Program-made: the position numbers and the translations under genes
NCBI RefSeq assembly: GCF_018873765.1
Contig: NC_057925.1
Location: 59,222,970-59,286,969, forward strand
Direction: 5' to 3'
DNA length: 64,000 nt
Source: Telopea speciosissima
Taxonomy: Eukaryota; Streptophyta; Magnoliopsida; Proteales; Proteaceae
In this document: piece after piece, positions 8,824 through 55,965 of the stretch
Layout: the number at the start of each line of letters is the position of its first letter
Position numbering within the stretch: the stretch's first letter is position 1
The notes under the pieces: model-generated
What the model saw: only the letters and a program-made list of their open reading frames with translations
What the model was told of the DNA's origin: nothing
Database searches by the model: none

Positions 8824-10786
8824 GTTTAGGTGAGGAAGTGAGTTGTTCAATGTGAAGCTAAAAGTTATATTGTTTTAATTAATTTTATTTTTCTTTTTCT
8901 TTCTTTGCTTTGAGGGGAAAGGGTTGGTTAGTGATGCTACATTGGCCGTTTGTCCACTCCTTTCTTTCGCATTTCAGTTGTGAGCCCAACCTAATTCGAT
9001 CCCCTGGTAAAAGCTGTTATTAAAGTATTGGTAACCAACCACATTAGGTATTGGATGCATCAAGGTTTGAAAATTAGAATGGTACCTCTCTGTGTTGCAA
9101 TTCCAATGACTCAATTTTAAGTTACAAATTTTACTATTGGATTTTCTCTGTTTACACAGAACTTTCATAGATTTTATGCTTGATCAGATGAATTATGCTC
9201 CTCATTGTTTTAAGTATTGGGATTGTATTGGATGAATGCCCAATCTGGACTGATGGTTGCGTATTGGAGCAATACATGCTAGTATTTCAGGGATCATGAA
9301 TCCGACCTGGATCACCCCATACAAGAGCTTGTGGATTGCTGCAACGGAAAATGCAAGAAATTTACCAGGCTTTCATATTTCTTTGATTTCTCCCAAATAT
9401 TAGGTAGAAAAAAGGTTCCTAACATAGGGTTTAGCTCTATTTTGGGCAGATCTACTTTTCCTTTGCCAAAAAATCAAGAAAAAGATACATTATATAGGAG
9501 ATTTCAAGGAAGATTTTCAGGGTTTTGTTTTTTTTCCCCCTCATTTTCATCCACTGTAGGATTCCAATGTACGTACTTGTTTGAATGAAATAAATAGGTA
9601 CGCCGTCCATGCATCCATGAAAGATTACTTGATTTCTGAAAGTGTTCATATGATTAAAAAGGAAGAAAGTGTGGAATAATAGGAGTTTTCGCTTTTTTTT
9701 TTCACTGAAGGCACTAACACATAACACAACTGCCTCCCATAAATAGATCCACCGACCCTGACCCATTATTACATGACCTACAGGCACATTTCAACAAACA
9801 AACATACATAATTTATCTTAGGGCTAGCTTTATAGGGGCTTTGGTTTCTTCCATTTCTCATAGTTATGAAAAAGACTCAGCTGCAGTTACCATAGAAGGA
9901 AGCAAAAGCTAGTCCTGGATGTTATCACTGTAAAAGAAATGATGTTTCCCATTGTTTCTTTTCATCCATGATGTTATCACTGTTCTGGGTAAGAGGAATA
10001 TCCATCTTTGTTTCAGAAATGCTGAAACAACGTTGCTTTGGCAATGGATTTTTATGAATCAAGTACTTACAAGTTACAGACGTGTTTAACAAGTTAGTTG
10101 AAGATGAGAAAAAAGAGCAACTCATCATCAAATTTCAGGGGGCTGTCTTTGAGTTTTGTTCATGTTCTTCTAAATGATACAACGAATCAAATCACTATGT
10201 GATTTTATCCTTCATACATGGGTGGTTGTGTAATGTGAGAATCAAATCACCGTGTGACTAAACCCACCGTTCTAAAGGAAATTGGATCAAATCTACCATA
10301 GAAAAGATGAAATTTGTGGCAAGTTCGAGTACACCTGAAGGCCGGAATCGGAATTTGATGAAATCGAGGTGTCTCTGTTGGTCCTTGGAGCAGGCATCAT
10401 CGTTTCTGAGATCTCAAAACCTTATGGAAACTAAGATTGGCGATAAGATTTAAGAAGGGTAAACGCGTCAGTAGAAGTCTCTGTTCAAGAACATTGGCTT
10501 CTACCGTTTCTAAAAGAAAGTCTCTTCCAAGACATGTGGAGAATCTTCACTGCTCATCACATCAGGGAACCGCAGCCATGGCTGTCGGTTTTTCCTTTTT
10601 GGTTGCAGGAAGAAGAAGAAGAAGGAGGGTAATTTGGTCATTTTAATTTTACTGTTTTCTATTGAATAGGTGATAAGGGTAAAATAAACATTTTCATTTA
10701 AACACTAACACTAGACAAACACCGTCAGGTTTCGGGGGTGTCAAGTAATTGTTTCAAACGTTGTTAATCGTAAGCAAAATGGAAAT
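8824..10786. other. 3' UTR and downstream flank of the GH127 gene
   Basis: No gene is supported. The part up to about 10029 is also present, rearranged, in the copy ending at 22521, so the duplicated segment included the downstream flank. The part from 10030 to 10786 shows only short frames without recognisable motifs. Confidence 0.6.
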
Positions 10787-11828
10787 CACCGTCTCCGATC
10801 ACTTTCGCCATCATAAAAAACTCCATAAAATTGCGCTAGTCTACGAAGGCAAATCGTATTAAAACACTCGATTTGACAACTTTTGTATTATTGAAGACGT
10901 TTTCTAGTAAAGGTGGCAAATTGCCTTCCGCATTTCGAAGCCAATGCACTCAGACCCTAGAATTTCCACAATGTTCGCGCTTATGGGCGAACGCATTCAA
11001 ATTGTGATCAAAGATTACAAAATTCCGGTTGATTCCATCATCGATATCCTGTAGATGCCCATCCATTGCATTTCTATGTTGGAGAAGATTTGTAAGCTCC
11101 CCCTGCATGGTATTTTGATTTTGTCGAATATCTTCCAATGCATCCGTCATATTGCTCATCGTTACCGTGAGACCTTTTTGTTGATCTATAAAATCTTGTT
11201 GTTGCCCCATAACAGTTTGCAATTGGTTATTCATATATTGTTGTTCATCTTGGATCTGCTGTTGTTGTACTAGAAACTGCTGTTGTCGATTCGTCAAATT
11301 AAGCTGCATCAAGTTCAGATTATTTACGTCTTGTGCAAGTTGTTCAATCTGTTGGTTAACTTGAAAAGCGGGTAAATTACGGAGGTAAGTAGTGTTTCTC
11401 GCCACACCATACATGTTATAGGCAGCAAGCACCCATTATGTGATAGGAAAAACCATTGATGTAATCAATTAATTGATTAACATCAAGCTGTGGAGGTTGT
11501 GGAGGGGGCCCATTCTGCGATTACGCTCTACGTTCCATCTGCCCCGCATTGTCTTGGTCCATCCTGAAATTGAAATGACCAATTAGTATTAGTATTAAAC
11601 AAGTGGAAGACGAGAGAGAGATAGGTCACAGGTCGGACTCTGTGGAGAGAGAGATGGAGATGAGGAAGAAGAGGCATGTGGGAACAGCTTTTCTACAAGT
11701 ATTGTTCATAATCTCAGGAGATGCATGCGGACTTGTCAGAACCTTAGGGGGGGCATGAGGAATATTGGGTGCATTTTAGGGGGTATCTGAAAAAATACAG
11801 ACAAAAAAAAAAAAAAAAAAAACCAGAA
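10787..11828 (-). pseudogene. Array unit 1: broken Gln-rich coiled-coil gene
   Basis: The N-terminal frame would begin at the ATG complementary to 11560-11562. The main coiled-coil frame runs 11432-10950 and covers about 160 codons. A C-to-T change turns an Arg codon shared by the other units into TGA near 10950, and homology continues past it to about 10787. The left end of the unit is missing compared with the others. Confidence 0.75.
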
Positions 11829-12990
11829 GATAAATTAGGGATTTAGGGCATTTGGTGCAATAGCATTTGGGAAAGCAGCATTTGGGTTATAAGATAACCC
11901 TAATTTGTCCAGCAGAGGAAATCGCCGTCTCCGATCACTTTCACCATCATAACAAACTCCATAAAATTGCACAAATCAACGTAGGCGAACCGTACTAAAA
12001 CACTCGATTTGATCAAGTCTTGTATTATTCAAGATGTTTTCAGGTAAAGGTGGCAAACTGCCTTCTGCATTTTGAAGCCAATGCACTCGGGCCCTAGAAT
12101 TTCCGCAATGCTGGCGGTTATGGGCGAACACATTCAAATTGTGATCAAAGATCACACAATTCCAGTTGATTCCATCATCGATATCCTGCAGATGCCCATC
12201 CGTTGCATTTCTATGTTGGAGAAGATTTGTAAGCTCCCCCTGCATGGTATTTTGATTTTGTCGAATATCTTCCAATGCATCCGTCATATTGCCCATCGTG
12301 TCCGTGAGACCTTCTTGTTGATCTATAAAATCTTGTTGTTGCCCCATAATAGTTTGCAATTGGTTATTCATATTTTGTTGTTCATCTTGGATCTGTTGTT
12401 GTTGCACTAGAAGCTACTGTTGTCGATTCGTCAAATTAAGCTGCGCCAAGTTCAGATTGTTTACGTCTTGTGCAATTTTTTCAATCTGTTGGTTAACTTG
12501 AAAAGCGGATAAATTACGGAGGTAAGTAGTGTTTCTTACCACACCATACATGTTATAGGCAGCACGCACGCATCATGTGATAGGAAAAACCATTGATGTA
12601 ATCAATTAATTGATTACATCAAGCTGTGGAGGCTGTGGAGGGGCCCCGTTCTGCGGTTGCGCTCTACATTCCATCCGCCCCGCATTGTCTTGGTCCATCC
12701 TGAAACTGAAATGACCAACTAGTATTAGTATTAAACAAGTGGGAGACGAGAGAGAGAGACCGATCACAGGTCGGACTCTGTGGAGAGAGAGATGGAGATG
12801 AGGAAGAAGAGGCATATGGGAACAACTTTCCTACTGGTATTGTTCATAATCTCAGGGGGGTGCATGTGGACTTGTCAGAACCTTAGGGGGGCATGAGGAA
12901 TACTGGATGCATTTTAGGGGGTATGTGTATTTAACCAAAAAAAAAATCTATCTGTGAAAAAAAAACAAACAAAAAAAAAGAAAAAAAGAA
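11829..12990 (-). pseudogene. Array unit 2: broken Gln-rich coiled-coil gene
   Basis: The main frame runs 12407-11976. It is bounded upstream by a stop near 12411 where other units read Gln, and downstream by a TGA after the FSTVRLR segment. The leader and the N-terminal ATG (near 12700, complement) are retained. Confidence 0.75.
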
Positions 12991-14151
12991 GATAAACTAG
13001 GGATTTGAGGCAGCAACAGCATCATTTGGGAAAACAACATTTGGATTATAAGATAACCCTAATTTGTCCAGTAGACGAAATCGCCGTCTCCGATCACTTT
13101 CACCATCATAAAAAACTCCATAAAATTGCACAAGTCTACGGAGGTGAACCGTACTAAAACACTCGATTTGACCAACTCTTGTATTATTCAAGACGTTTTC
13201 TGGTAAAGGTGGCAAATTGCCTTCGCTTTTTGAAGCCAATGCTCTCGGGCCCTAGAATTTCCGCAATGCTGGCGGTTATGGGCTAACACATTCAAATTGT
13301 GATCAAAGATCACAAAATTCCAGTTGATTCCATCATCGATATCCTGCAGATGCCCATCCGTTGCATTTCTATGTTGGAGAAGATTTGTGAGCTCCCCCTG
13401 TATGGTATTTTGGTTTTGTTTAATATCTTCCAATGCATCCGTCATATTATCCATCGTTTTCGTGAGACTTTCCTGTTGCTCTATAAAATCTTGTTGTTGC
13501 CCCATAACAGATTGCAATTGGTTATTCATATATTGTTGTTTATCTTGGATCTGTTATTGATGACTAGAAGCTGCTGTTGTCGATTCGTCAAATTAAGCTG
13601 CTTCAAGTTCAGATTGTTTACGTCTCGTGCAAGTTGTTCAATCTGTTGGTTAACTAGAAAAGCGGGTAAATTACGAAGGTGAGTAGTGTTTCTCGCCACA
13701 CCATACATGTTATAGGTAGCACACACCCATCATGTGATAGGAAAAACCATTGATCTAATTATATAATTGATTAACATCAGGCTGTGGAGGCTATGGAGGG
13801 GGCCCATTCTACGCTAGCGCTCTACGTTCCATCCACCCCGCATTGTCTTGGTCCATCCTGAAACTGAAATGACCAAGAAGTCTTAGTATTAAACAAGTGG
13901 AAGACGAGAGAGAGAGAGACAGGTCACAGGTCGGACTCTGTGGAGAGAGAGATGGAGATTAGGAAGAAGAGGCATATGGGAACAGCTTTCCTACTGGTAT
14001 TGTTCATAATCTTAGGGGGTGCATGTGGACTTGTCCAAACCTTAGGGGGGCATGAGGAATATTGGGTGCATTTTAGGGGGTATGCGTATTTAACCAAAAA
14101 AAAAAAAATCTATTTCTGAAAAAATACAGACAAAAAAAAATAAAATCAGAA
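12991..14151 (-). pseudogene. Array unit 3: frameshifted Gln-rich coiled-coil gene
   Basis: The coding sequence is spread over three overlapping frames: 13726-13526, 13529-13188 and 13239-12997. This shows at least two frameshifts relative to units 4 and 7. The last piece keeps the basic C-terminus and ends in an Ala/Ser-Asn-Pro tail. Confidence 0.75.
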
Positions 14152-15297
14152 GATAAACTTGGTATTTGGGCAGGAGCAGCAGCAGCATTTGGGTTATAAG
14201 ATAACCCTAATTTATCCAACAGACAAAATCGTCGTCTCCGATCACTTTCACTATAAAACAAAATTCCATAAAATTACGCAAATCTATGAAGGCGAACCGT
14301 ATTAAAACACTCAATTTGACCAACTCTTGTATTATTCAAGACGTTTTCTGATAAAGGTGGCAAATTGCCTTCCGCGTTTTGAAGCCAATGCACTCGAGCC
14401 CTAAAATTTCCGCAATGCTGGCGGTTATGGGTGAACGCATTCAAATTGTGATCAAAGATCACAAAATTCTGGTTGATTCCATCATTAATATCCTGCAGAT
14501 GCCCATCCGTTGCATTTCTATGTTGGAGAAGATTTGTAAGCTCCCCCTGTATGGTATTTTGATTTTTTCGAATATCTTCCAATGCATCCGTCATATTGTC
14601 CATCGTTTTCGTGACACCTTCCTGTTGCTCTATAAAATCTTGTTGTTGTCCCATAACAGTTTGCAATTGGTTATTCATATATTGTTGTTCATCTCGGATC
14701 TGTTGTTGTTGTACTAGAAATTGTTGTTGTCGATTCGTCAAATTAAGCTGCGTCAAGTTTAGATTGTTTACGTCTTATGCAAGTTGTTCAATCTGTTGGT
14801 TAACTTGAAAAACGGGTAAATTATGGAGGTGAGTAATATTTCTCGCCACATCATACATGTTTTAGGCAGCACACACTCATCATGTGATAGGAAAAACCAT
14901 TAATGTAATCAATTAATTGATTAACATCAAGTTGTAGAGGCTGTGGAGGGGGCCTGTTCTGCAGTTGCGCTCTACGTTCCATCCACCTCGCATTGTCTTG
15001 GTCCATCCTGAAACTGAAATGACCAACTAGTATTAGTATTAAACAAGTGGAAGACGAGAGAGAGACAGGTCACAAGTTGGACTTTGTGGAGAGAGAGATG
15101 GAGATGAGGAAGAAGAGGCATATGGGAACAGTTTTCCTACTGGTATTGTTCATAATCTCAGGGGTGCATGTGGACTTGTCAGAACCTTAGGGGGGCCATG
15201 AGGAATATTGGATGCATTTTAGGGGGTATACGTATTTGACCAAAAAATAAAATCTATCTCTAAAAAAATACAGACAAAAAATAAAAAACAAAAAGAA
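14152..15297 (-). pseudogene. Array unit 4: longest open coiled-coil frame in the array
   Basis: The frame 14756-14274 (160 codons) covers the Gln-rich segment through the IECF segment. The C-terminal ESDRRRRF part continues in 14261-14073 after a break. This is the best-preserved unit, but it still lacks a continuous start-to-end frame. Confidence 0.75.
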
Positions 15298-16628
15298 GAT
15301 AAACTAGGGATTTGGGGCAGCAGCAGCATCATTTGGGAAAGCAACATTTTGGATTATAGGATAACCCTAATTTGTCCAGCAGACGAAACCGTCGTCTCCG
15401 ATCACTTTCACCATCATAAAAAACTCTATAAAATTGCGCAAGTCTACGAAGGTGAACCGTACTAAAACACTTGATTTGACCAACTCTTGTATTATTTAAG
15501 ACGTTTTCTGATAAAGGTGGCAAATTGCCTTCCACGTTTTGAAGCCAATGCACTCTGGCCCTAAAATTTCTGCAATGCTGGCGGTTATGGGTGAACGCAT
15601 TCTGTAGACACTGAATTTTGTCACCCCCCGGCGATGATGACAACAGGACACGGACAGACATCGGCATCTCTCTCAAGAAGGACTCTTGTCCCTACATCTA
15701 AACCAAATCACCCTAACATCCCTAAAATGACTTATAAGACCCTTTTACCAAATGCTGAAGGAGGTACTACTCACCCTCCCCCACCACGGCGGTCCCTAGA
15801 ATTTCGAAGCCAATGCACTCGGACCCTAGAATTTCCACAATGTTGGCGGTTATGGGCGAACGCATTCAAATTGTGATCAAAGATCACAAAATTTTGGTTG
15901 ATTCCATCATCGATATCTTGCAAATGGCCATCTGTTGCATTTCTATGTTGGAGAAGATTTGTAAGCTCCCCCTGCATGGTATTTTGATTTTGTTGAATAT
16001 CTCCCAATGCATCCGTCATATTGTCCATCGTTTTCGTGAGACTTTCCTGTTGCTCTATAAAATCTTCTTGTTGTCCTATAACAATTTGCAATTGGTTATT
16101 CATATATTGTTGTTTATCTTGAATCTGTTGTTCAATCTGTTGGTTAACTTAAAAAACGGGTAAATTACGGAGGTGAGTAGTGTTTCTTGCCACACCATAC
16201 ATGTTATAGTCAGCACGCACCCATCATGTGATAGGAAAAACCATTGATGTAATCGGATAATTGATTAACATCAGGCTGTGGAGGGGGCCCGTTCTACGAT
16301 TGCGCTCTATGTTCCATCCGCCCCGTATTGTCTTGGTCCATCCTGAAACTGAAATGACCAAGTAGTCTTTGTATTAAACAAATGGAAGACTAGAGAGAGA
16401 CAGGTCACAGGTCGGACTCTGTGGAGAGAGAGATGCAGATTAGGAAGAAGAGGCATATGGGAACAGCTTTCCTACTGGTATTGTTCATAATCTTAGGGGG
16501 TGCATGTGGACTTGTCCAAACCTTAGGGGGGCATGAGGAATATTGGGTGCAGTTTAGGGGGTATGTGTATTTAACCCAAAAAAAATCTAATTCTGAAAAA
16601 ATACAGACAAAAAAAAAATAATTCAGAA
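15298..16628 (-). pseudogene. Array unit 5: unit split by a 205-bp insert with a 62-bp flanking duplication
   Basis: Unit sequence runs 15298-15601 and is then interrupted by foreign sequence (15602-15806). It restarts at 15807 by repeating the unit's own 15540-15601 segment. A further ~97 bp is missing near 16127, where a TGTTG-type microhomology joins the flanks. These three events together account for the longer 1331-bp period. Confidence 0.75.
15602..15806 (+). mobile_element. Insert starting like a gypsy-type LTR end (fragment)
   Basis: The insert opens TGTAGACACTGAATTTTGTC, which resembles the 5' end of many plant LTRs, and begins exactly at the unit break. It has no CA end, no matching second LTR and no 5-bp target duplication. 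If it is an LTR it is only a fragment, probably carried in by a repair event. Confidence 0.4.
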
Positions 16629-17491
16629 GATAAACTAGGGATTTGGGTAAGAGCAGTAGCAGCATTTGGAAAAGTAGCATTTGGGTTATAAGATAACCCT
16701 AATTTGTCCAACAGACGAAATTACCGTCTCCGATCACTTTCACCATCAGAAAAAACTCCATAAAATTGCACAAATCTACGAAGGCGAACCGTACTAAAAC
16801 ACTCGATTTGACCAACTCATGTATTATTCAAGACGTTTTCTGATAAAGGTAGCAAATTGCCTTCGACATTTCGAAGCCAATGCACTCGTGTCCTAAAATT
16901 TCCGTAATGCTGGCGATTATGGGCGAACGCATTCAAATTGTGATCAAAGATCACAAAATTCCGGTTGATTCCATCAGCAATATCCTGCAGACGCCCACCC
17001 GTTGCATTTCTATGTTGGCAAAGATTTGTAAGCTCCCCCTGCATGGTATTTTGATTTTGTTGAATATCTTCCAATGCATCCGTCATATTGTCCATCGTTT
17101 CCGTGAGACCTTCCTGTTGCTCTATAAAATCTTGTTGTTGCCCCATAACAGTTTTCAATAGGTTATTCATATATTGTTGTTCATCTTGGATCTGTTGTTG
17201 TTGTACTAGAAGTTGTTGTTGTCGATTCGTCAACTTAAGCTGCGTCAAGTTCAGATTGTTTACCTCTTGTGCAAGTTGTTCAATCTGTTGGTTAACTTGA
17301 AAGCGGGTAAATTACGGAGGTGAGTAGTATTTCTTGCCACACCATACATGTTATAGGCAGCATGCACTCATCATGTGATAGGAAAAACCATTGATGTAAT
17401 CAATTAATTGATTAACATCAAGCTGTGGAGGCTGTGGAGGGGGCCCATTCTGCGGTTGCGCTCTACGTTTCATCCGCCCCGCATTGTCTTG
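16629..17491 (-). pseudogene. Array unit 7 (last unit), truncated at its 5' end
   Basis: The main frame runs 17248-16817. The unit continues to the N-terminal codons and stops at 17491, just inside the start region, where copia pol sequence begins. Confidence 0.7.
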
Positions 17492-19570
17492 GGTATCTTT
17501 TCCTCTTTACAACCTTCTCATTTGAGTGTCACTTTAACTGATGGTTCCTGTGCTACAGTTAGAGGCACTGGTACTATGCAACCCACTTCTTCTTTGTCCT
17601 TAACCTCTCCCTTATATTTGTCTAAATTTCCTTTTAATCTCTTGTCTGTTAGTCAACTTACCAAAGCCTACAACTGTTCCTTAACATTTTTTCCTGATTC
17701 TTGTGTCTTTCAAGATTTGCGGACAAGGTGGACGATTGGTAGAGGTAGGGTCTCGACGGGCTCTATCTTCTTGAAGACACATCTTCATTTGCTTGTTCGA
17801 GCATCGCTACCCCTCATCATCTTCATTGTCACCTTGGTCATCCATCTTTACAGAGTTTACAAAAATTGTTTCCTAGTTTGCGTTCCCTTTCAGTTTTACA
17901 TTGTGAGTCATGTTAGTTTGGGAAACTCCACCGTGTGAATTATCCCCATCGTGTCAATAAACGGGCCTTACATCCCTTTTCTTTGGTTCACTCCGATGTA
18001 TGGGGTCCTTGTCGAGTGTCTTCTAAGTTGGGTTGTACATATTTTGTTACTTTTGTTGATGACTACTCTCGTGTGACTTGGTTGTACTTAATGAAAAGTA
18101 GTTCTGAATTGTTCTCCATCTTTTCTTCATTTATTGCTGAAATTAAGAATCAATTTGGATTTTATATTAAGGTATTGCGTAGTGATAATGCACGGGAGTA
18201 TTTTTCTGCTCCTTTTTCTGACTTTATGACCACTCGTGGAATCATTCATCAGTCTTCTTGTTCAAACACACCCCAACAAAATGGTGTGGCTAAACGGAAG
18301 AACCGTCACTTGATGGAAGTGACTCAGTCCCTTCTCTTTGAAATGAAGGTGGACAAGACTTTCTGAGCTAATGCAGTGTTAACTGCTTGTTATCTTATCA
18401 ATCGAATGCCCTCCTCTATCCTACGTGGAGGCCTTTCTTATGCTTTGCTTGTTCCTTCTGAGTCTTTATTCCCTTTGTCCCCACGTGTCTTTGGGTGTGT
18501 CTGCTTTATTTGTGACCGTACTCCAAGGTTATCAAAGTTAGACCCCAAAGCCATTAAATGCATTTTTGTGGGATATTCTAGTGTTCAGAAGGGGTATCGT
18601 TGTTATTCCCCTGTTCTTCGCAAGTATTTTGCTATGGTTGATGTTCCTTCTTTGAATCTCAATCTTATGTGCATGAGCCTGTTGAGGATCCTTCCTTGGA
18701 TGAGGATCTTCCCCTTTGTGTTATTCAGCCTCCTGTGCGGTCTCTTGTTACTTCACCTCTTGTGCAGCCCCCTGTTCGGCCTCCCATCATTCATGTGTAT
18801 CACCATGAACCTCGTTAAAGAGAAGAAGTTGCTACCCACGTCTTTGCCGTCTGTAGATCCTATACCTGATCCTCCCTTTTTTGACTTGGACCATCCCATT
18901 GCTCATCGGAAAGGTACCCGTCGTTGTGTTACACATCCAATTTCTTTTTATGTTTTTTATTCTGGTTTATCTCCTACCTTTCAAACTTGCCTTTCCACTG
19001 TGGCATCTCATCCTATTCCTAAGAGCATTGCAGAGGCTTTATCTATTTCTGGCTGGAGGACAGCTATGGAAGATGAATTGCAGGCTTTGGACCATAACCA
19101 CACTTGGATTTTGTTCCACTGCCTCCTGGAAAATCTGCCATTGGTTGTCACTGGGTTTATGTGGTCAAAGTTAATGCTGATGGCTCTCTTGCTCGCCTGA
19201 AAGCTCGGTTGGTGGCTAAGGGCTATGCCCAGGTGTATGGTGTCGATTACTTGGATACCGTTTCCCCAATTGCCAAACTCTCCTCTGTTCGTGTCTTGTC
19301 TCCCTTGCTGCCTCGCATCACTGGCCTCTGCACCAGCTTGATGTCAAGAATGCTTTCCTCCATGGGGATCTTCATAAGGAAGTGTATATGGAGCAACCTC
19401 CTGGGTTTGTTGCTCAGGGGGAGTCTGGGCTGGTTTGTAGATTGAAGAAGTCTTTGTATGGATTGAAATAGTCTCTGAGAGCACGATTTGGCAGCTTTAC
19501 AAAGGTGGTTCTTGAGTTTGGCCTATCACGATGCAATAGTGATTATTCTCTTTGCCATCGTCAAACAAGT
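17492..19570 (+). pseudogene. Ty1/copia pol fragment, decayed, no LTRs
   Basis: Successive frames encode a protease/pre-integrase segment (17500-17930), an integrase core with VDDYSRVTWLY and NTPQQNGVAKRKN (17935-18366), the integrase C-terminal segment with LINRMPSS (18376-18650), and the start of reverse transcriptase with VAKGYAQ and SLYGLK (19020-19480). Stops and frameshifts separate them. Both ends are truncated: gag, the YVDD region, RNase H and LTRs are absent. It abuts the tandem array on the left and an unrelated gene fragment on the right. Confidence 0.85.
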
Positions 19571-19959: not shown

Positions 19960-19974
19960 TTCTTAAATGAAAAA

Positions 19975-22521
19975 AAAAAAATTCCTGGTGTTGAACAATA
20001 TGCTAAACTCAATACTTTAGAACAGTCTCATATGTTTGTAAAGCATGCTTCAACCTCTACTTAAGGTCTATTATTTATTGGAATTTCTATTATGCGCTTC
20101 TTCCCATCTGTTTAAGTATCCAGAGAGGAAGGAAGCCTGGAGTTATGATCTATATGCTTCCTCCGGGCCATGGGGTATCCAAGGCCCGGATCGAGTTACC
20201 ATGGATAAGGAACAAAGTTCAACTCTTTCTGGTGTTGTTGCTATATATGGGACAAGTCTATACTTGAGGCCCCTAGTGTTTAGCTTATATGCATTCGTTG
20301 TTCAACATATCTCCTATCCATGCATTTATCTAATAGAGGCTGTGCCTCTCTCTCCCCTAGAGTAGATTTATCTTCATCCACTCACACTGGCAGAAAAATA
20401 GTTCTGATGATGACAAAAACAAAGAATCGGCTTCTGAGAAGTGGGGTGGGGGTGGAAAAAGATCCTGTCAATCTGGGCAGCGTGCAGCCGTGTGCAGCGC
20501 TTGAGATGAGGCAGGTGCATTGACCGCCTCACCCTTGCTCGGACAAGGCGTGGACAGGGGGTAAGGCGATAAATGCACACCACCTCATCGCAGGTGTTGC
20601 ACATGCACCACTGCTGCCCGGATTGACAGGAGCTGGGCGATCCTTTATGGGCCCTACCTTCTTGCCGGTCTGACTAGTGGCGACTGGGACAGTATTAAGA
20701 CAGGACCAACAAACAAACTCACCCTCGGACTGGATAACTGTAATCCCAATAAGTTATAGTTCTCAGCTGATCTCCCTTTCCCAAGTGGTCAGCAATGAGA
20801 CGTTTGTCTTTGTGAATTACTCGAACAATTCCATTACAATGGAGAAGTTACCAGAACGAGGCACAGATTCTGCTGTCCATGCGACATTAATCAGACTTAT
20901 TTCCGCCGAAGACATGAACTCCTGTAGCTAATTTCTCGTCACCGACTGATGTCAGTTTTGCTAGAACCATTTGATCTTCCTGGGAAGCTGGTGATGCAAC
21001 AAGGACTAAATATATGGATATCTTTCTGTGGCAGCAAGTGCAACTAGTGACAGGGAGTTGTTTACATTTAAGGTGGTGGCGGGATATGATTAGATAAGGG
21101 AAGAATAACTCAGTTTCCTAGCTTGGAGTCAGAGAGCCATCAAGGGTGTTTTGTGTATAGTGCTGGGCTGAACTACAATGCAGCCGGCACAAGTGCTAAG
21201 CTCAGCTGCCAGTCAGGGACAGCAGATGCTGGATTCCCAGCAGGCAGTAATTAAGTTTTACCTAGCTTGAATAATGGGATATAGAGAAGAAAATATCATC
21301 CCAATAGCTTTGTGGCAAAAGGCGTGAGGGGGAACTTCTTACTGATGCCATTGCTGAGCTTAATTGAGATGAGATGAATCTTACACACTTTATTTCAATA
21401 TAGGAGCTTAAGTTTAGGTGAGAAAGTGAGTTGTTCAATGTGAAGCTAAAAGTTATATTGTTTTAATAATTTTCTTTTTCTTTTTCTTTCTTTGCTCCTC
21501 TCTGTGTAGCAATTCCAATGACTCAATTTTTACAATTATAAATTTTACTATTGGATTTTCTCTGTTTACACACAACTTTCATGGATTTTATGCTTGATCA
21601 GATGAATTATGCTCCTCATTGTTTTAAGTATTGGGATTGTATTGGATGAATGCCCAATCTGGTCCGATGGTTGCGGATTGGAGCAATACATGCTAGTATT
21701 TCAGGGATCATGAATCCAACCTGAATCGCCCCATACAAGAGCTTGTGGATTACTGCAACGGAAAATGCAAGAAATTAACCAGGCTTTCATATTTCATTGA
21801 TTTCTCCCAATTATTAAGTAGAATTAGAAAAGGCTCCTAACATAGGGTTTAGCTCTATTTTGGTCAGATCTACTTTTCCTTTGCCAAAAAATCAAGAAAA
21901 AGATACATTATATAGGAGATTTCAAGGAAGGATCAAAAGGGTTTTTTTTTTCTCTTCCATTTTCATCCACTGCAGGGTTCCAATGTATGATTTCAATCTC
22001 AAACCCTCTATTTCTTACTTGATTGAATGAAATCAATAGGTACGCCGTATGTGTTCTAAGACGATGGTATCCATGCATCCATAAAAGATTACTTGATTTC
22101 TGGAAGTGTTCATATGATTAAAAAGGAAGAAAGTATGGAATAATAAGAGTTTTCCCCCTTTTGTTTTTTTTAACTGAAGGCACACACACATAACAGAACT
22201 GCCTCCCATGAATATATCCACTGAATCAACAAAAATACATAATTTATCTTAGGGCTAGCTAGCTTTATAGGGGCTTTGGTTTCTTCCATTTCTCATAGTT
22301 ATGAAAAAGACTCGGCTGCAGTTACCATAGAAGGAAGCAAAAGCTAGGCCTGGAAGTGTTTAGAGAAGCGAAAGAGAAAAAGATTCTGTAAAAGAACTGA
22401 AAGAGTGCAGAATCATCATCATTTCAGCCATGCCTTTTTTTTCATTGTTTCTTTTCATCCATGATGTTATCACTGTTCTGGGTAAGAGGAATATCCATCT
22501 TTGTTTCAGAAATGCTGAAAC
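19975..22521 (+). pseudogene. Rearranged partial copy of the GH127 gene and its 3' flank
   Basis: Blocks match the gene at 79-8823 in order: 19978-20115 to about 5630-5760 (intron 5), 20114-20445 to about 6688-7015 (exon 8 and intron 8), 20638-21495 to about 8103-8907 (exon 12 and 3' UTR), 21497-22521 to about 9085-10029 (flank). Intron sequence is retained, so it arose by DNA duplication, not retroposition. Large deletions separate the blocks and many 2-5 bp insertions break every frame. The active-site CC segment is disrupted near 20233. It cannot encode an enzyme. Confidence 0.9.
20463..20631. mobile_element. Small foldback element (MITE-like) inside the GH127 copy
   Basis: The ends are inverted repeats: TCCTGTCAATCTGGGCAGC on the left and the complement of TCCTGTCAATCCGGGCAGC on the right, with one mismatch. 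Internal segments also pair (GATGAGGCAGGTGCAT against ATGCACACCACCTCATC), so the 169 bp can fold almost end to end. It replaces the material deleted between source positions ~7020 and ~8103. I see no target duplication. Confidence 0.65.
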
Positions 22522-22794
22522 ATCTTATTGATAACAGAAGAAACACAGACTATTGACTATTTAACCTAGCATTTAACCCAATGACCCAACTGGACTGCAT
22601 GAGATGCTGTATATTTATTTCTTGGTATAAAAGAGATTTCATGAATATTGTTTTAAATTCATTTTAGCTAATTCACTGTACCATATTCTTTTTTAGTGGC
22701 TCATAATGCTTTGAACCCCCATTGCGTATTCTTTTTGAAGCAAGGTTTCTGACAATGTCTCGTGGCTACTGGTAGATTCTAAATTCTATTTGGT

Positions 22795-48900: not shown

Positions 48901-49761
48901 ATTTTTTTTTTTTTTTTGGTGAATAAAAATGCATTAGAAATAGGAAACAACAGTTCAACAATATTTTCATTAAAGATACCTTGCATATGACATAAATGAC
49001 TATTGTGCGATGGTAGAGCCCAAGGATCGGTTGCCCCGACACAAATCATTTCAGCTCGAGAAGGAGTTCTTATTTTGAGAAGGGGCTCAGAATTCCCTCT
49101 CGATATTGATATGAACTCAAAGGAACTCATCCACCTCAAAAATCAGCTTGTAAGGTGAGAGAACCCAAGAACATGTCAACCCCCACCATGTCCCTTTATG
49201 GAACTAGTGTCTTATATATGGGAACGTAAATTTTGCACCCACAATAGGCCCTTATGCAAAGAAATGAATGATTTTTCACTGAATGCCGACGATCCAACTC
49301 GCCCATATTGGTCCTTCCACTTGTCTTTGTTTGCAAACTATTTGGTAGTTGAAGACTCCATTATTGATATTCTCTCTCTATTAGTTTTTCTTAAAAACGA
49401 CAAAGTTCTCTTGTTTTGAAACTGGGTAGAGGAATGCATCGTCTAAATTTTTTTTCGGCTTGTAAATCCCCACAAATGAGGCAAATATCATATCAACTAT
49501 ATTCCTGCGCTGAAGATTTGCAAAGACCCCAACAACGTTGATGCAAGCTTTTCAGAGGAAGGTTTGGACCTTTGGGGGTATATTAGAGGACCAAATAATC
49601 TTCCATACAACCTTTTGTATGGCAACAATCCTTAGAGTTAGAGGAGGAGGAAGCTAGAAAGCCTCAGGCTCCTAGACGATAAACAATCATAGAGAAAATC
49701 CCTTTTGTGTGTGGGTCCCAACAAAGCATATCCCAACAATCCTCTTAGGTAAGAGGGATCT
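48901..49761 (-). mobile_element. LINE (L1-type) 3' part with A tail, left of the copia insertion
   Basis: On the minus strand the sequence ends in a run of about seventeen A residues (48901-48917). Around 49480-49600 it encodes a zf-RVT-like piece (KACINVVGVFANLQRR, then CLICGD in another frame) with stops. It continues the element seen at 55713-55965. Confidence 0.5.
49757..49761 (+). repeat. Target site duplication GATCT, left copy
   Basis: GATCT immediately precedes the 5' LTR and is repeated at 55713-55717 immediately after the 3' LTR, which is the 5-bp duplication expected of a Ty1/copia insertion. Confidence 0.9.
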
Positions 49762-50480
49762 TGTTGGAATTTTTCAAAATATTGATGTGGACTTTTAGTC
49801 CCACATCGGTTATGAAAGGAAAGCTCATTGGGTTTATATGTGTTAGTAGTAAGTAGTTATTATTATCACATGTAATGCTAGAAGAGATTGTACTGTGCAC
49901 TTGCGAGTGAGGACGGTACCCGTCCGAGCGCGTACGCGTGCGCGTGCGCGTGCATGAGGCGCAATGTGGCGCTTTGATGGCTCACTTTGCACTTTGCACG
50001 TGCGCATCATCGCAGTATGTCGCCTTAATCTTTTCGGGATCGACGGTGTTTGATCAAAGGGTGCTTAGGATCGATCCGACCGTTGGATCGGTGGCTGATC
50101 AAAGAGGGAGTGCAACCCTTGGTTTAACATTGACCCCAGGAGTTGCAGCCCATACGAACAGCCAAGGGAGCCCAGCCCAATAGTCATGACCTATCAGGTC
50201 AAGCCATATGAGCTAATGGGTGTGACCCATCTGAATAGGCCTTGTGGGCCTATAAATGGGCCACGAATTCTCTCAGTCCAGATATTAAAAAAATCTCTGA
50301 TAGCTTCACAGTGTTACTGGCTCTGCAACCAGTAACAGTCCGCCTGATTTATCTTGGGAGGCAGGTTTGCTGCAACCCTTTGCAGGATTATAAGGGTGCA
50401 AATACTGTCTTAAGGATAGAACGATTTCGTTCGACTCAGGCCTTCTTTCTGTCCTCTCCTTTTTGTTCAGATTTCTAACA
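49762..50480 (+). repeat. 5' LTR of the copia element
   Basis: It runs from TGTTGGAATTTTTC to TTTCTAACA. A TATAAAT box lies at 50251-50257, so transcription probably starts near 50280. A CG-rich run of GCGTGC repeats sits near 49925-49955. The first bases TGTTGG differ from TGTTAG in the 3' LTR, and the latter pairs better with the CTAACA end. Confidence 0.93.
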
Positions 50481-50498
50481 ATCTTAAGACAGTATTTG
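50399..50498 (+). promoter_or_regulatory. Primer-binding region complementary to the element's own LTR
   Basis: CTTAAGACAGTATTTG (50483-50498), two bases after the 5' LTR end, is the exact reverse complement of CAAATACTGTCTTAAG (50399-50414) inside the LTR. No TGG-starting tRNA-type primer site follows the LTR. The arrangement resembles self-priming known from Tf1/sushi gypsy elements. Its role here is inferred. Confidence 0.6.
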
Positions 50499-50502
50499 TT
50501 CA

Positions 50503-53500
50503 ATGGAGGAGACTGCAATCATGAAGATACCTGGGAACGAGATAAGCAAACTTGAGAAGTTTGATGGGTCATTTTTCAAACGTTGGAAAGGGAAGATGTA
50601 TTTCTTCCTCACTGCTTTGAAACTTGCTCATGTCCTGAACGAAGAGAAGTCAGTAGCACCGACACCGACAGACACCACTGCAGAAGCTTCAAGTGGAGAG
50701 ACACCGGTGCAGAAACAGCAGCGCCAAAAGTGGGAGCAAGATGACTTCATGTGCAAGGGCTACATCCTCAATGGGTTATCAAACACACTTTATGATGTGT
50801 ATGAGCCCAAATTTGCAGACAGCACGTCGAGAGAACTATGGGAGGATCTCGATAAAAAGTACAAAATTGAGGATGCTGGCAATAAGAAGTTTCTTATAAG
50901 TAAGTTGTTTGATTACAGGATGGTAGGAGATAAGTCTATTATTTCACAAACCTATGAGTTGCAAGGTCTCATGAATCAAATCATCTCTGAGGGCAATTCT
51001 CTTGACGAATCTTTCCAAGTGTCATCTATTATTTCAAAGTTACCTTTTGCTTGGAAAAATTGTCGGAAAGAGTTGAAACAGAAGAAGGATGCAATGACTA
51101 TGCAAGAGTTGATTAAGTATATCCAAGTTGAAGAGAATTCTCGCAAACTGGATAAACTTGAATTGGAGGAAAAATCTCCAAAGGCTCATGTCATAGAAAA
51201 TGCATCTTCTAAGGGCAAGAAGAGAAAGTATGATGGGAAAGGCACTGTTTCTGAGAAGAAAAAGGGTACATTTATTAACCCCAAAGCGGTTTGCTGGAAA
51301 TGCAGAAAAGCCGGTCATTTCAATAAACAGTGCAGAGTTTATATCAAGGAGAAGCAACAAAAGGACCAAGCCAACATGGTTGACAATGATGACTGGGCTG
51401 CTATGATATCTGAGGTATATGTAGTGGGTGATGATGAGGAATGGTGGATCGATTCTGGTGCAACCAAACATGTTGCCAAGAACAAAAATTTGTTCAAAGT
51501 TTATGAACCTATAGCAGATGGACAAGATCTTTTTATGGGAAATTCTTCAACTGCTAAGGTCATAGGTAAAGACATAGTGGTTCTGAATCTCACATCCGGA
51601 AAAAAGCTTACTTTGAATGATGTACTTCATGTTCCTGATATTAGGAAGAACTTAATGTCTGTAAGCTTGCTTGACAAACATGGATTTAAAATCATGTTTG
51701 AGTCAGGGAACATCATAGTGTCCAAAGGGGGAGTTTATGTTGGGAAAGGATATGCATCGAACGGGATGTATAAATTTAATATGATTAATGAAAACTCATC
51801 TTCTGCTTACATTGTTTCTACTTTTGATACATGGCATTCTAGACTTGGGCATGTTAATTATAAGTGCATGAGAAATATGGTTAAATTAGGTTTATTACCA
51901 GAAAGTATATCTTTTAGTCATGACAAATGTTCTGTATGCATCAAGTCTAAAATTGTTAGAAAATCTTTTAAGAAAGTAGAAAGGAATACACAACTCTTAG
52001 AATTAGTACATTCTGATTTGTGTGAGTTAGAAGGTATTCTAACTAAAGGTGGTAAAAGATATTTCATCATATTTATAGATGACTGTTCAAAATACACATA
52101 TGTATATCTGTTAAGGACTAAAGATGAGGCTTTGGAGAAATTCAAAATCTACAAAGCCGAAGTGGAAAACCAATTGGATCGTAAGATTAAAATCTTACAA
52201 ACTGATAGGGGAAGAGAATACTTCTCCACTGATGATTTTTGTGAAGTTTATGAAATTATCCATCAAACAACGGCACCCTATAATCCTCAACAGAATGGAG
52301 TAGCAGAAAGGAAAAATAGGACTCTAACAGAAATGGTGAATACACTTTTACTTACTTCTGACTTACCAAAGAATTTATGGGGGGAAGCATTAATGACTGC
52401 TTGTCATATACTTAACCGTATACCCTATAAAAAGACTAATATCACTCCCTATGAATATTGGATGAAGAGAAAACCTTCTCTTGGATATTTCAAAGTATGG
52501 GGATGTAGAGCATTGGTAAGATTAACTGATCCTAAAAGACCTAAATTAGGTGAAAAGGCAATTGAATGTATTTTCATTGGCTATGCCCAACATAGCAAGG
52601 CCTATAGATTTCTAACGATGGAATCTACAGAGACCGTTAGCCAAAATATAATTTTAGAATCTAGAGATGCTGAGTTCTTTGAGGATTCATTCTCTAGGAA
52701 ACGAAAGAATGAAAATACAAACAAGGGAGATCAAGATATTATTCAATCAAATTCTGAGAATAATGAGAGTGTTGAACTTAGAAGAAGTAAAAGAGTTAGA
52801 GTGAAAAAATCCTTTGGTCCAGATCTCTACCAATTCTTGGTAGAAGGAAACAGAAATGAAGTTACATATTCTTGTGTGTATAATGTTGAACATGATCCAT
52901 TGACTTTTCGAGAAGCCATGAATTCTCAAGATTCTGTTTTTTGACAAGAAGCTATAAATGATGAAATGGATTCTCTCATGGGTAATAAAACATGAGTTTT
53001 AACAGATTTACCTCATGGATTTAAATCTATTGGTTGTAAGTGGATTTTTAAGCGAAAGCTTAAAGCTGATGGAACCATTGATAAGTTTAAAGCTAGGCTT
53101 GTAGCAAAGGGCTTTAAGCAAAAAGAAGGCATTGATTATTTCGATACATATGCTCCTGTTGTTAGAATTAGTACAATTAGATTGTTAATTGCTTTAGCAT
53201 CGATTAATAAACTTGTTATACACCAAATGGATGTTAAAACTGCTTTTCTAAATGGAGATTTAGAAGAAAAAGTTTACATGGAACAACCTGAAGGGTTTGT
53301 TTTGAAAGGCCAGGAAAATAAGGTTTGTAAACTAGTCAAATCTTTATATGGTCTAAAACAAGCTCCTAAGCAATGGCATGATAAATTTGACCAAAAGGTT
53401 GTAGCAAATGGATTTAGAATAAATGAATCTGATAAATGTGTTTATTCTAAATTCAAGAATGGACATGGTGTTATAATATGTTTATATGTTGATGATATGC

Positions 53501-54442
53501 TAATCTTTGGTACTAATACAAGCACTATTTTGGAGACAAAGGCTTTCCTATCTTCGTGTTTTGATATGAAACATATGGGTGAAGCAAATATAATTTTGGG
53601 AATCAAAATTATTAGATCCTCTGATTGTATTTCTTTAACACAGTCTCATTACATAAAAAAAATATTAAAGAAATTCAATCATGAGGATCTGTAAACCAGT
53701 TGCTACCCCATATGATCATTCTATTAGATTAATTTCTAATGAAGGAAATTGTATATCTCAATTGAAATACGCTAGTATCATTGGCAGCTTAATGTATGCC
53801 ATGCAGTGCACTCGTCCTGATATAGCTTTTGCAGTTGGTGTTTTGAGTAGGTTTACTCATAACCCTGGACAAATTCATTGGAATGCAGTTTCTAGAGTAC
53901 TTAAGTACTTAAAGGGCACAATGAATTATGCATTAAGTTATAAGGATTTTCCCGTAGTACTAGAAGGATACACAGATACTAATTGGATCACAGGATCCGA
54001 TGAATCAAAGTCCACAAGTGGTTGGATATTTACTTTGGGTGGAGGATCAATTTCTTGGGGATTCAAGAAACAGACTGTAGTTTCACACTCCACTATGGAG
54101 TCTGAATTTATCGCTTTAGCAATGGCAGTAAAGGAAGCAGAATAGCTTAGGGACCTCTTAACTGAGATTCCTCTGTGGCCTAAGCCAATACCTGCTATAT
54201 CAATATCTTGTGATAATGAAGCAACATTATCAAGGGCTTATAATAAAGTCTACAATGAAAAGTCAAGGCATATCAGTTTAAGATATAGCTATGTAAGAGA
54301 ACAACTCATCAAAGGAGTTGTGACTATTAGTTATGTAAAGTCAAAGGAAAATTTGGCTGATCCCTTTACAAAAGGCCTGGGTAGGGATGTGGTATGGAAG
54401 ACTTCCAGGGAGATGGGTTTAAAGCTTTTAAATGAGAGGTAA
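50503..54442 (+). pseudogene. copia gag-pol polyprotein, interrupted
   Basis: The frame opens at ATG 50503, only 22 bases past the LTR, and runs 813 codons to a TGA at 52942. Gag carries the zinc knuckle CWKCRKAGHFNKQC (residues 264-277). The protease has DSGATKH from residue 317. Integrase shows the HHCC segment (HSRLGHV, CSVCIKSK), then FIDDCSKYTY and PQQNGVAERKNRTL. Reverse transcriptase (from about 53030) has YVDD at 53485-53496. RNase H lies in 53760-54440 with GYTDTNW and SHSTMESEF. Breaks: TGA at 52942 and 52993, a one-base insertion near 53691, and TAG near 54143. It ends at TAA 54440-54442. Confidence 0.93.
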
Positions 54443-54989
54443 CCTGCAAGTGGAAACCAACTAGACACTAGACCAACATCTAGTCAACTAGTTCAATGGA
54501 AAAACACTTGTAGTAATAACCGGTAATGCACTCAACTAGTAGAGATAAGATCTCTTGACATCTCAAGGTAGTGCATGTTTGTATGGAGAAACCGACAGAG
54601 GGTAGGATCAGTCCTTCAATGAGTCTATGCCTTATAGGAAATGCAAGTCATACAATTGCATTTTATTAGATTCACCTATATAAGTGCAGGAAGTGGGGCC
54701 GCTTATGCGAGATTCAAAGCTTGTCTCTAAGGCACTTATGAAAACCTAAGATGAAAGCACAAGGCCATAAATGTGCGGGTGTTATTGAAACTATGTTCAA
54801 GTAAGTCATATGTCTAGTATATTAGATTTGTCGCTATAAAATTCTAAGTTCAAGGCTACGGCTACTTCGTTTTTGACAAATATTAATGTATTTTGACAAC
54901 ATAAAGGTTCAAGTCGAAAGACACCTTTATGTAAATATGATTTAGAAGTACAGAGAGTTTATTGACTGAGGCTCAATTATTTTAAAAAT

Positions 54990-54999
54990 TGGGGGAAAT
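54990..54999 (+). promoter_or_regulatory. Polypurine tract of the copia element
   Basis: TTGGGGGAAAT lies directly before the 3' LTR, where plus-strand DNA synthesis starts. Confidence 0.75.
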
Positions 55000-55712
55000 T
55001 GTTAGAATTTTTCAAAATATTGATGTGGACTTTTAGTCCCACATCGGCTATGAAAGGAAAGCTCATTGGGTTTATATGTGTTAGTAGTAAGTAGTTATTA
55101 TTATCACATGTAATGCTAGAAGAGATTGTACGGTGCACTTGCGAGCGATGACGGTACCCATCCGAGCGCGTACGCGTGCGCGTGCGCGTGCATGAGGCGC
55201 AATGTGGCGCTTTGATGGCTCACTTTGCACTTCACACATGCGCATCGTCGCAGTATGTGGCCTTAATCTTTTCGGGATCGACAGTGTCTGATCAAAGGGT
55301 GCTCAGGATCGATCCGACCGTTGGATCGGTGGCTGATCAAAGAGGGAGTGCAACCCTTGGTTTAACATTGACCCCAAGAGTTGCAGCCCACACGAACAGC
55401 CAAGGGAGCCCAGCCCAATAGTCATGACCTGTCAGGTCAAGTCATATGAGCCAATGGGTGTGACCCATCCGAACAGGCCTTGTGGGCCTATAAATAGGCC
55501 ACGAATTCTCTCATCCCGATATTAAAAAATCTCGATAGCTTCACAGTGTTATTCTCTCGCAACCGAAGATGATCGCTGATTTATCTTGGGAGGTAGGTTT
55601 GCTGCAACCCTTTGCAGGATTAGGAGGGTGCAAATCTTGTCTTAAGGACAGAACGATTTCGTTCGACTCAGGCCTTCTTTCTGTCCTCTCCTTTTTGTTC
55701 AGATTTCTAACA
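55000..55712 (+). repeat. 3' LTR of the copia element
   Basis: It runs from TGTTAGAATTTTTC to TTTCTAACA and is collinear with 49762-50480. The TATA box reads TATAAATA. Differences cluster in the segment matching 50290-50340 and are otherwise mostly C/T and G/A changes. The self-complementary segment here reads CAAATCTTGTCTTAAG, with two mismatches to the primer region. Confidence 0.93.
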
Positions 55713-55965
55713 GATCTTCAACACCACATCCACCTCTTATACAGAGAACTGGGCTCTCAGCTTAGACATATCCCAGGGATTATCTAGAGCTATTAATTCA
55801 GCAACCCAAATAAAAAGACAATGGGGAGGTTGGAGGGAGAGATGAATCCAAAAATCACTCAAAATATTAACACTCCTCCCATTACCCACAATCCAAATCA
55901 ATCCCTTAATTAGAAGCCCTCTCTGCTTTATAAGATACTTTGTTATGTCCAAGATGGACAAGACC
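55713..55965 (-). mobile_element. LINE fragment right of the copia insertion
   Basis: On the minus strand it encodes GLIWIVGNGRSVNILSDFWI, the segment that in plant L1-type elements follows the reverse transcriptase and precedes the zf-RVT region. It joins the 48901-49761 part across the copia insertion and the GATCT duplication. No reverse-transcriptase core is present, so the LINE is 5'-truncated. Confidence 0.6.

What the first reader, a model, noticed from the sequence alone, without database searches (positions are those of the whole stretch)
50399..50498. Copia element with a 16-nt primer region perfectly complementary to its own LTR
Seen: CAAATACTGTCTTAAG inside the 5' LTR and CTTAAGACAGTATTTG two bases after the LTR are exact reverse complements, and a G-U pair would extend the duplex by one. 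The second copy sits where a primer-binding site belongs, and no TGG tRNA-type site is present. Known: Tf1/sushi gypsy elements prime reverse transcription with a cleaved piece of their own RNA. Inference: this plant Ty1/copia lineage may self-prime, using an internal R/U5 segment about 120 nt past the probable RNA start instead of the RNA 5' end. If so, cleavage after 50414 would free the primer.
Basis: partly seen in the sequence, partly recalled or inferred. Interest (0 to 1): 0.78.

Follow-up and report, generated by a model that had tools for sequence, protein, structure and literature searches.

The report
Retrotransposon that supplies its own primer
A plant jumping gene appears to start copying itself with a short piece of its own RNA instead of a host tRNA, and related families in the same genome have changed the primer and its landing site together; the idea is already in print for a plant lineage that it probably belongs to.

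Summary
CAAATACTGTCTTAAG (50399-50414, 5' LTR) and CTTAAGACAGTATTTG (50483-50498, 2 nt after the LTR) are exact complements; 2000 shuffled LTRs reached 12 nt at most. Six further families, found by gag or RT similarity, keep the layout (LTR...CA, 2-nt spacer, site) with other sequences. In the best-paired copy of each of seven families the site pairs with its own LTR segment at 12 of 12 positions, with other families' at 6-9; no other of 5040 pairings equals the true one. Pairing spans positions 1 to 14-15 (12 in one family), is almost purely Watson-Crick, and stops abruptly. Eighteen loci with a tRNA-iMet site show nothing like it. Best explanation: self-priming by a short LTR-derived RNA whose sequence is copied back into the site each cycle. 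Self-priming was already predicted for the plant TAR lineage of Ty1/copia (PMC6317226, passages read), so this is most likely a further member of a known kind. Priming itself, the cut and TAR membership are untested here.

The parts
49762..50480 (+). 5' LTR, 719 bp, TG...CA
   Evidence: 95.2% identical to 3' LTR, K2P 0.050; target duplication GATCT at 49757-49761
50251..50256 (+). TATA motif (TATAAA), 148 nt before the self-primer segment; probable RNA start about 30 nt downstream (inferred)
50400..50414 (+). self-primer segment (arm) in the LTR, 15-nt footprint; 50399 extends it to 16 in this copy
50419..50432 (+). small hairpin GAACGA-TT-TCGTTC 4 nt after the proposed cut, followed by GACTC; an unlike-sequence hairpin of the same size stands there in E2, shorter ones in E1 and D
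   Evidence: as good in 35 of 2000 shuffles (A) and 36 (E2); 403-439 in D, E1 and C, 966 in E3, so not significant there
50481..50482 (+). 2-nt spacer between LTR end and primer site (AT)
   Evidence: AT, AG or AC in 105 of 105 rows, LTR ending CA in 102 of 105; the search patterns were anchored on this layout, and all 105 loci contained it
50483..50497 (+). primer-binding site complementary to 50400-50414 (50498 pairs too in this copy)
50503..52944 (+). open frame of 813 aa with gag and integrase domains
   Evidence: Retrotran_gag_2, Pol_BBD, gag_pre-integrs, rve, SH3_retrovirus
53182..53694 (+). reverse transcriptase stretch (RVT_2) in a separate open frame; this copy is damaged
54991..54998 (+). 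polypurine tract GGGGGAAA before the 3' LTR
55000..55712 (+). 3' LTR, 713 bp; GATCT duplication at 55713-55717
55631..55646 (+). segment in the 3' LTR with two adjacent differences from the 5' LTR copy

Best explanation
The element is a Ty1/copia LTR retrotransposon that primes minus-strand DNA synthesis with a piece of its own RNA. The 3' end of the LTR segment (G50414) is freed by a cut, most likely by the RNase H of the element's own reverse transcriptase as in Tf1 (inferred). The piece lies on the complementary site two bases after the LTR, and DNA synthesis starts with the complement of 50482, which leaves two extra bases beyond the LTR's CA. When the plus strand is made, the RNA primer still joined to the minus strand is copied, so the next generation's site is a fresh copy of the primer. 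That would keep the two matched while both drift (inferred). Shown here: the match, its conservation, its covariation between seven families, its sharp 12-15 nt limits and near lack of G-U pairs, and the absence of a tRNA-iMet site. Inferred: that the duplex primes, where and by what it is cut, and the recopying.
For: Covariation: in the best-paired copy of each of seven families (RT identity to the window element 54-96%) the site pairs at 12 of 12 positions with its own LTR segment (other families' 6-9), and 1 of 5040 assignments, the true one, reaches that total; outside the shared core (positions 7-12) own pairs are 6 of 6, other families' mean 2.3, maximum 4. Copies: of 82 with the LTR piece fetched, 60 have at least 14 of 15 Watson-Crick pairs; of the 15 family-A copies L108-L122, chosen by gag similarity alone, 11; of 20 further copies of the E families chosen by gag similarity, 17 have 14-15. 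One of these, L166, has a double transversion that keeps the pair. Limits: family-averaged Watson-Crick fraction 0.86-1.00 at positions 1-14, 0.73 at 15, 0.12 at 16, 0.06 at -1; G-U at most 0.05 inside (77 copies). Controls: 18 tRNA-iMet-site loci reach 7-11 of 15; 0 of 110 fetched pieces (105 elements) carry the iMet 12-mer, while AACA, 1-3 nt and that 12-mer occur 1396 times in the genome and 0 times with the pattern read backwards. Prediction met: two of nine RT hits of unknown site type fell in the same RT group (support 89/98, not starred), and both then showed the same layout with a seventh sequence.
Against: No RNA, cDNA or enzyme evidence. Older copies are often imperfect (22 of 82 under 14 of 15; L078, L075 and L025 at 8-10), some because of LTR indels or CpG decay; in family C position 8 is paired in only half of 16 copies. 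Some within-family 'compensations' (family C positions 8 and 9, L112) are transitions at methylation-prone sites and may be two separate deaminations. In the predicted whole leader the duplex is not always favoured (mean pair probability 0.00-0.98 over 8 sequences, with assumed RNA starts). A cut in cis would leave only 33-206 nt of template before the RNA's new 5' end, so the 3' R region would have to extend past the segment, or the primer must act in trans. The 3' LTR of the window copy and the 5' LTRs of some copies (L111, L116) carry a variant segment that fits the copy's site less well.
Confidence: 0.84

Rival explanations
1. A host tRNA, or a half tRNA cut in the anticodon loop, is the real primer, and the LTR segment only masks or regulates the site.
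For: Half-tRNA priming is known in plant copia lineages (Bianca, Osser and others; PMC6317226). The spacer plus site core, ATCTTAAG, resembles the complement of an anticodon loop of tRNA-Leu(UAA) over 8 nt (recalled, not from a call).
Against: Seven families have different site sequences that each follow their own LTR. 20 sampled tRNA loci give at most 7 nt in a row against six sites (best 11 of 15 without regard to runs). The core is not fixed (TTAAAGG in D, TTTAAGG in E3, CTTAAAG in F). A strict tRNA-Leu-type pattern had 0 hits; with one mismatch 13 sites, none examined as a tRNA.
Confidence: 0.06
2. The duplex serves RNA dimerisation, packaging or translation control rather than priming; the palindromic core CTTAAG could pair two RNAs.
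For: CTTAAG is its own complement; arm and site could pair between two RNA molecules; loop length varies from 33 to about 200 nt.
Against: The site sits 2 nt after the LTR in the 105 rows (layout imposed by the patterns, present in every locus) and in both F copies, none of the 110 pieces has an iMet site, and the covarying part lies outside the palindrome.
Confidence: 0.07
3. Chance or shared ancestry of a short inverted repeat with no function.
For: Copies within a family are closely related; the 30 copies were ranked by similarity to a stretch that holds both arms.
Against: Families chosen by gag or RT similarity alone show full pairing with different sequences; 12 nt was the shuffle maximum.
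Confidence: 0.02

Closest known systems
TAR lineage of plant Ty1/copia (Houba, Osr-1; Neumann et al. 2019, PMC6317226, passages read)
   Same: Plant copia element; no tRNA site; site 0-5 nt after the LTR complementary to at least 10 nt of the 5' LTR; predicted to prime with a piece cut from the 5' LTR of the transcript.
   Different: Membership by phylogeny was not tested here. The passages read report complementarity as a prediction; they do not mention cross-family covariation, sharp 14-15 nt limits or a lack of G-U pairs (supplements not seen).
Tf1/sushi chromoviruses and Tj1 (self-primed Ty3/gypsy; Tj1 in PMC4600332, passages read)
   Same: Self-complementary primer site, no tRNA; for Tf1, cutting of the RNA by RNase H (recalled; the title of Levin 1996 stands in that paper's reference list).
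   Different: Gypsy, not copia; the primer is the 5' end of the mRNA (11 nt in Tf1, recalled), here a segment inferred to lie about 26-220 nt inside the RNA.
tRNA-iMet-primed copia elements of the same genome
   Same: Copia RT; LTR ...ACA plus 1-3 nt spacer plus site.
   Different: Site TGGTATCAGAGC, no comparable match in the LTR (18 loci); the two RTs linked to an iMet site by position (3.7-3.9 kb) fall outside the self-primed group.
Half-tRNA-primed copia (Bianca, Osser, Bryco)
   Same: Copia elements without a 3'-tRNA site.
   Different: Their site matches a half tRNA; here the site follows the LTR.

Membership tests
Ty1/copia LTR retrotransposon | Integrase before reverse transcriptase, copia-type gag and RT domains | tested here: met
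   Retrotran_gag_2, gag_pre-integrs and rve in 50503-52944; RVT_2 in 53182-53694
Ty1/copia LTR retrotransposon | TG...CA LTRs, 5-bp target duplication, polypurine tract | tested here: met
TAR lineage (REXdb) | At least 10-bp site 0-5 nt after the 5' LTR complementary to the 5' LTR, no tRNA site | tested here: met
   criterion from PMC6317226; not all host tRNAs were compared
TAR lineage (REXdb) | Groups with TAR reference elements in RT, RH and INT trees | not testable with these tools
   no reference TAR protein sequences held; the RT tree has only rows from this genome
Tf1/sushi self-primed elements | Ty3/gypsy chromovirus gene order | tested here: not met
   integrase lies before RT
Tf1/sushi self-primed elements | Primer is the extreme 5' end of the RNA | tested here: inconclusive
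   TATA motif 56-249 nt before the arm suggests an internal segment (none found in three C copies); RNA ends not mapped
Tf1/sushi self-primed elements | RNase H cuts the RNA to free the primer | not testable with these tools
   needs biochemistry
tRNA-iMet-primed copia | TGGTATCAGAGC just after the LTR | tested here: not met
   0 of 110 fetched pieces; for the window
Half-tRNA-primed copia | Site complementary to a tRNA anticodon region | tested here: inconclusive
   20 tRNA loci (Lys, Asn, Arg, Ile, Cys, Asp, Gly), longest run 7; other tRNAs not sampled

The most novel reading that the evidence does not exclude
These plant copia families use an internal, excised 12-15 nt RNA from their own LTR as primer, and reverse transcription writes its sequence back into the binding site every cycle. 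That frees both from host tRNAs: any mutation in the LTR segment repairs its own site in one generation, so primer sequences drift without losing fit. This would explain the abrupt limits and the near lack of G-U pairs, and makes the footprint length a fossil record of primer length.
Probability: 0.45. Interest if true: 0.7.

Novelty: new member of a known kind. Interest (0 to 1): 0.52.

Why it matters
Most studied retroviruses and LTR retrotransposons borrow a host tRNA to start copying. A plant lineage that does without one has been predicted from complementarity; covariation between seven families in one genome is stronger evidence. The sharp 14-15 nt footprint gives exact, testable predictions for the cut site, the primer length and the cDNA ends. 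It also raises a concrete puzzle: a cut at an internal segment would remove the RNA's own 5' end, so R must extend past the segment or the primer must come from a second RNA.

Tried and rejected
tRNA-iMet site: rejected (0 of 110 pieces). Other host tRNAs: only partly tested (20 loci, six sites); a tRNA-Leu-type pattern gave 0 hits strictly and 13 unexamined sites with one mismatch. Chance: rejected. Relatives in viral contigs: the RT scan found none. Folding: the duplex dominates in the short stretch (0.86-0.99) but in the whole leader ranges from 0.00 to 0.98, so folding neither proves nor refutes it. A hairpin after the cut as a shared structure: suggestive in A and E2 only. TAR membership: no reference sequences; passages of PMC4535378 and PMC4963935 gave no TAR primer site. 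Within-family compensations were set aside as weak evidence where they could be methylation decay. Of nine RTs of unknown site type only L190 and L195 were followed up; the other seven were not. Rows dropped: 8 of 85 before (L025, L075, L078, L079, L093, L100, L102, L121). For L093, L100 and L102 the LTR piece had not been fetched; the other five scored under 11.5. In one search, L170 (piece too short for its family), L161 and L172 gave no arm. The family rows used are the best-paired copies, not averages.

Full report
What is there. The window holds a copia element at 49762-55712 with 719- and 713-bp LTRs, 95.2% identical (K2P 0.050), a GATCT duplication, a purine tract and gag, integrase and RT domains. 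The RT lies in a separate open frame from gag-integrase, so this copy is damaged. Shuffling the LTR gave 12 nt at most (2000 trials); sliding the test through 1710 positions of the window gave 13 at most, apart from this very pair.

Within the family. The host genome (G000, 823 Mb) returned 40 scored of 529 candidate matches to 50380-50520, and 30 were given as loci. Of these 30 (the window copy included), 14 keep 16 of 16 pairs, 15 keep 15 and one keeps 13. They were ranked by similarity to a stretch that includes both arms, so they are a biased sample. Copies found by gag similarity (150 scored of 3381 candidates) are not biased in that way: of 15 such family-A copies fetched (L108-L122), 11 have at least 14 of 15 pairs, and the rest 11, 12, 12 and 13.

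Between families. From two gag searches (the second scored 150 of 4470 candidates) I took 5' ends of more distant families. They show the same layout: LTR ending in CA (102 of 105 rows), a two-base spacer AT, AG or AC, then a site that matches a segment upstream in the LTR. My search patterns were anchored on this layout; every locus searched contained it. Segments in the best-paired copies: A AAATACTGTCTTAAG; C AAATTTCATCTTAAG (also with CG or TG in place of CA); D AAATATCTCCTTTAA; E1 GTTCCACACCTTAAG; E2 ATCTAAATCCTTAAG; E3 ATCAATTACCTTAAA. A site paired with another family's segment gives 6-11 of 15, with its own 15 of 15. An RT tree of 18 rows put the six families together with two RTs whose site type I did not know (89/98, below the tool's star), while the two RTs linked by position to a tRNA-iMet site fell outside. 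I then fetched the 5' ends of those two. Both have CA-AT-CTTAAAGCATTA with TAATGCTTTAAG in the LTR, a seventh family (F) with a 12-nt match. With seven families, only the true one of 5040 assignments of sites to segments reaches its total.

Copies counted. One search lists 85 copies; in 3 the LTR piece was not fetched. Of the other 82, 60 have at least 14 of 15 Watson-Crick pairs and 68 at least 13. Of 20 more copies of the E families chosen by gag similarity, 17 have 14-15; L170's piece is too short to hold the arm, and L161 and L172 show none. L166 changed T-A to A-T at position 8 on both sides, which deamination cannot explain. By contrast the changes in family C (positions 8 and 9) and in L112 are C-to-T type on either strand and may have arisen separately after insertion.

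Shape of the match. Over 77 copies of six families, averaged by family, Watson-Crick pairing is 0.86-1.00 at positions 1 to 14, 0.73 at 15 and 0.12 at 16; at the base before position 1 it is 0.06. In the 17 copies, positions 1-12 are paired in 17 of 17, position 15 in 13 of 17 and position 16 in 1 of 17. G-U pairs are nearly absent inside and common just outside. Selection for pairing alone would be expected to tolerate G-U and a ragged end. A site recopied from a primer of fixed length would not. This is my inference from the general mechanism by which a retroviral primer site is remade from the primer (recalled).

Controls. AACA plus 1-3 nt plus TGGTATCAGAGC occurs 1396 times in the genome and 0 times with the pattern read backwards. 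In 18 such loci, picked from those listed on C1 for varied spacers, the best match to the site in 310 nt upstream was 7-11 of 15, longest run 5-9. None of 110 fetched family pieces (105 elements) carries that 12-mer. Twenty host tRNA loci (Lys, Asn, Arg, Ile, Cys, Asp, Gly), out of 62 matches to the tRNA family model, gave no run over 7 nt against six of the seven sites (F was found later).

Where the primer would lie. A TATA motif stands 148 nt before the segment in A, 130 in D, 247-249 in E1 (a second one at 187 in L094), about 234 in E2, about 238 in E3 and about 56 in F (read off); none was found in three C copies. If RNA starts about 30 nt after TATA, the segment is internal in these families. 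The distance from segment to site is 33 nt (F), 54-55 (C), 64-66 (D), 65-73 (A; two further values, 201 and 235, belong to the badly paired copies L075 and L078), 143-163 (E2), 192 (E3) and 113-206 (E1). If the cut happens in cis, the strong-stop DNA would be only that long, so the 3' R must reach past the segment; otherwise the primer acts in trans. This is unresolved.

Literature. Passages of PMC6317226 (Neumann et al. 2019) say that TAR elements were predicted to self-prime, that 12% of all elements studied were so predicted, that Houba and Osr-1 had been proposed before, and that the primer is released by cleavage of the 5' LTR of the transcript. A search for self-priming, TAR, copia and PBS together from 2019 on listed that paper alone; the other searches listed further papers, of which I opened only some. 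Subscription journals are mostly not held and supplements could not be read. PMC5445492 (passages) reports fungal GalEa copia elements with a conserved hairpin instead of a primer site and no complementary U5 sequence. PMC4600332 (passages) describes Tj1, whose site matches the 5' end of its mRNA.

Verdict. The reading is not new for plant copia. The covariation across seven families, the sharp near-G-U-free footprint and the recopying idea are, as far as the passages read show, additions.

Noticed in passing
50335-50368 versus 55550-55583 (approximate): The two LTRs of the copy differ in a clustered block before the segment, and the segment itself differs by two adjacent bases in the 3' LTR. 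L111 has that variant in its 5' LTR and L075 has a site (CTTAAGACAAGATTTG) that fits the variant exactly, which hints at exchange between subfamilies.
   Followed up: partly
10737-17503: Six copies in a row of a unit of mostly about 1.15 kb (60-92% alike), with minus-strand frames rich in Gln that look coiled-coil-like.
   Followed up: no
5619-10029 and 19973-22522: Blocks 91-98% identical in the same order, 12.4-14.4 kb apart, flanking the repeat array and a broken copia remnant (17408-19200): a likely local segmental duplication.
   Followed up: no
50415-50437; L094+L103, L101+L107, L099+L105: Families A, E1, E2 and E3 share GACTC 17-19 nt after the segment's end, in A, E1 and E2 right after a small hairpin of different sequence.
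   Followed up: partly
L198, L199: The seventh family (F) has only a 12-nt match and a TATA motif about 56 nt before the segment, closer to the Tf1 layout than the others.
   Followed up: partly
50409-50414 and 50483-50488: The core CTTAAG is palindromic and kept on both sides in four of the seven families' best copies (A, C, E1, E2), so it could also pair two RNA molecules.
   Followed up: no
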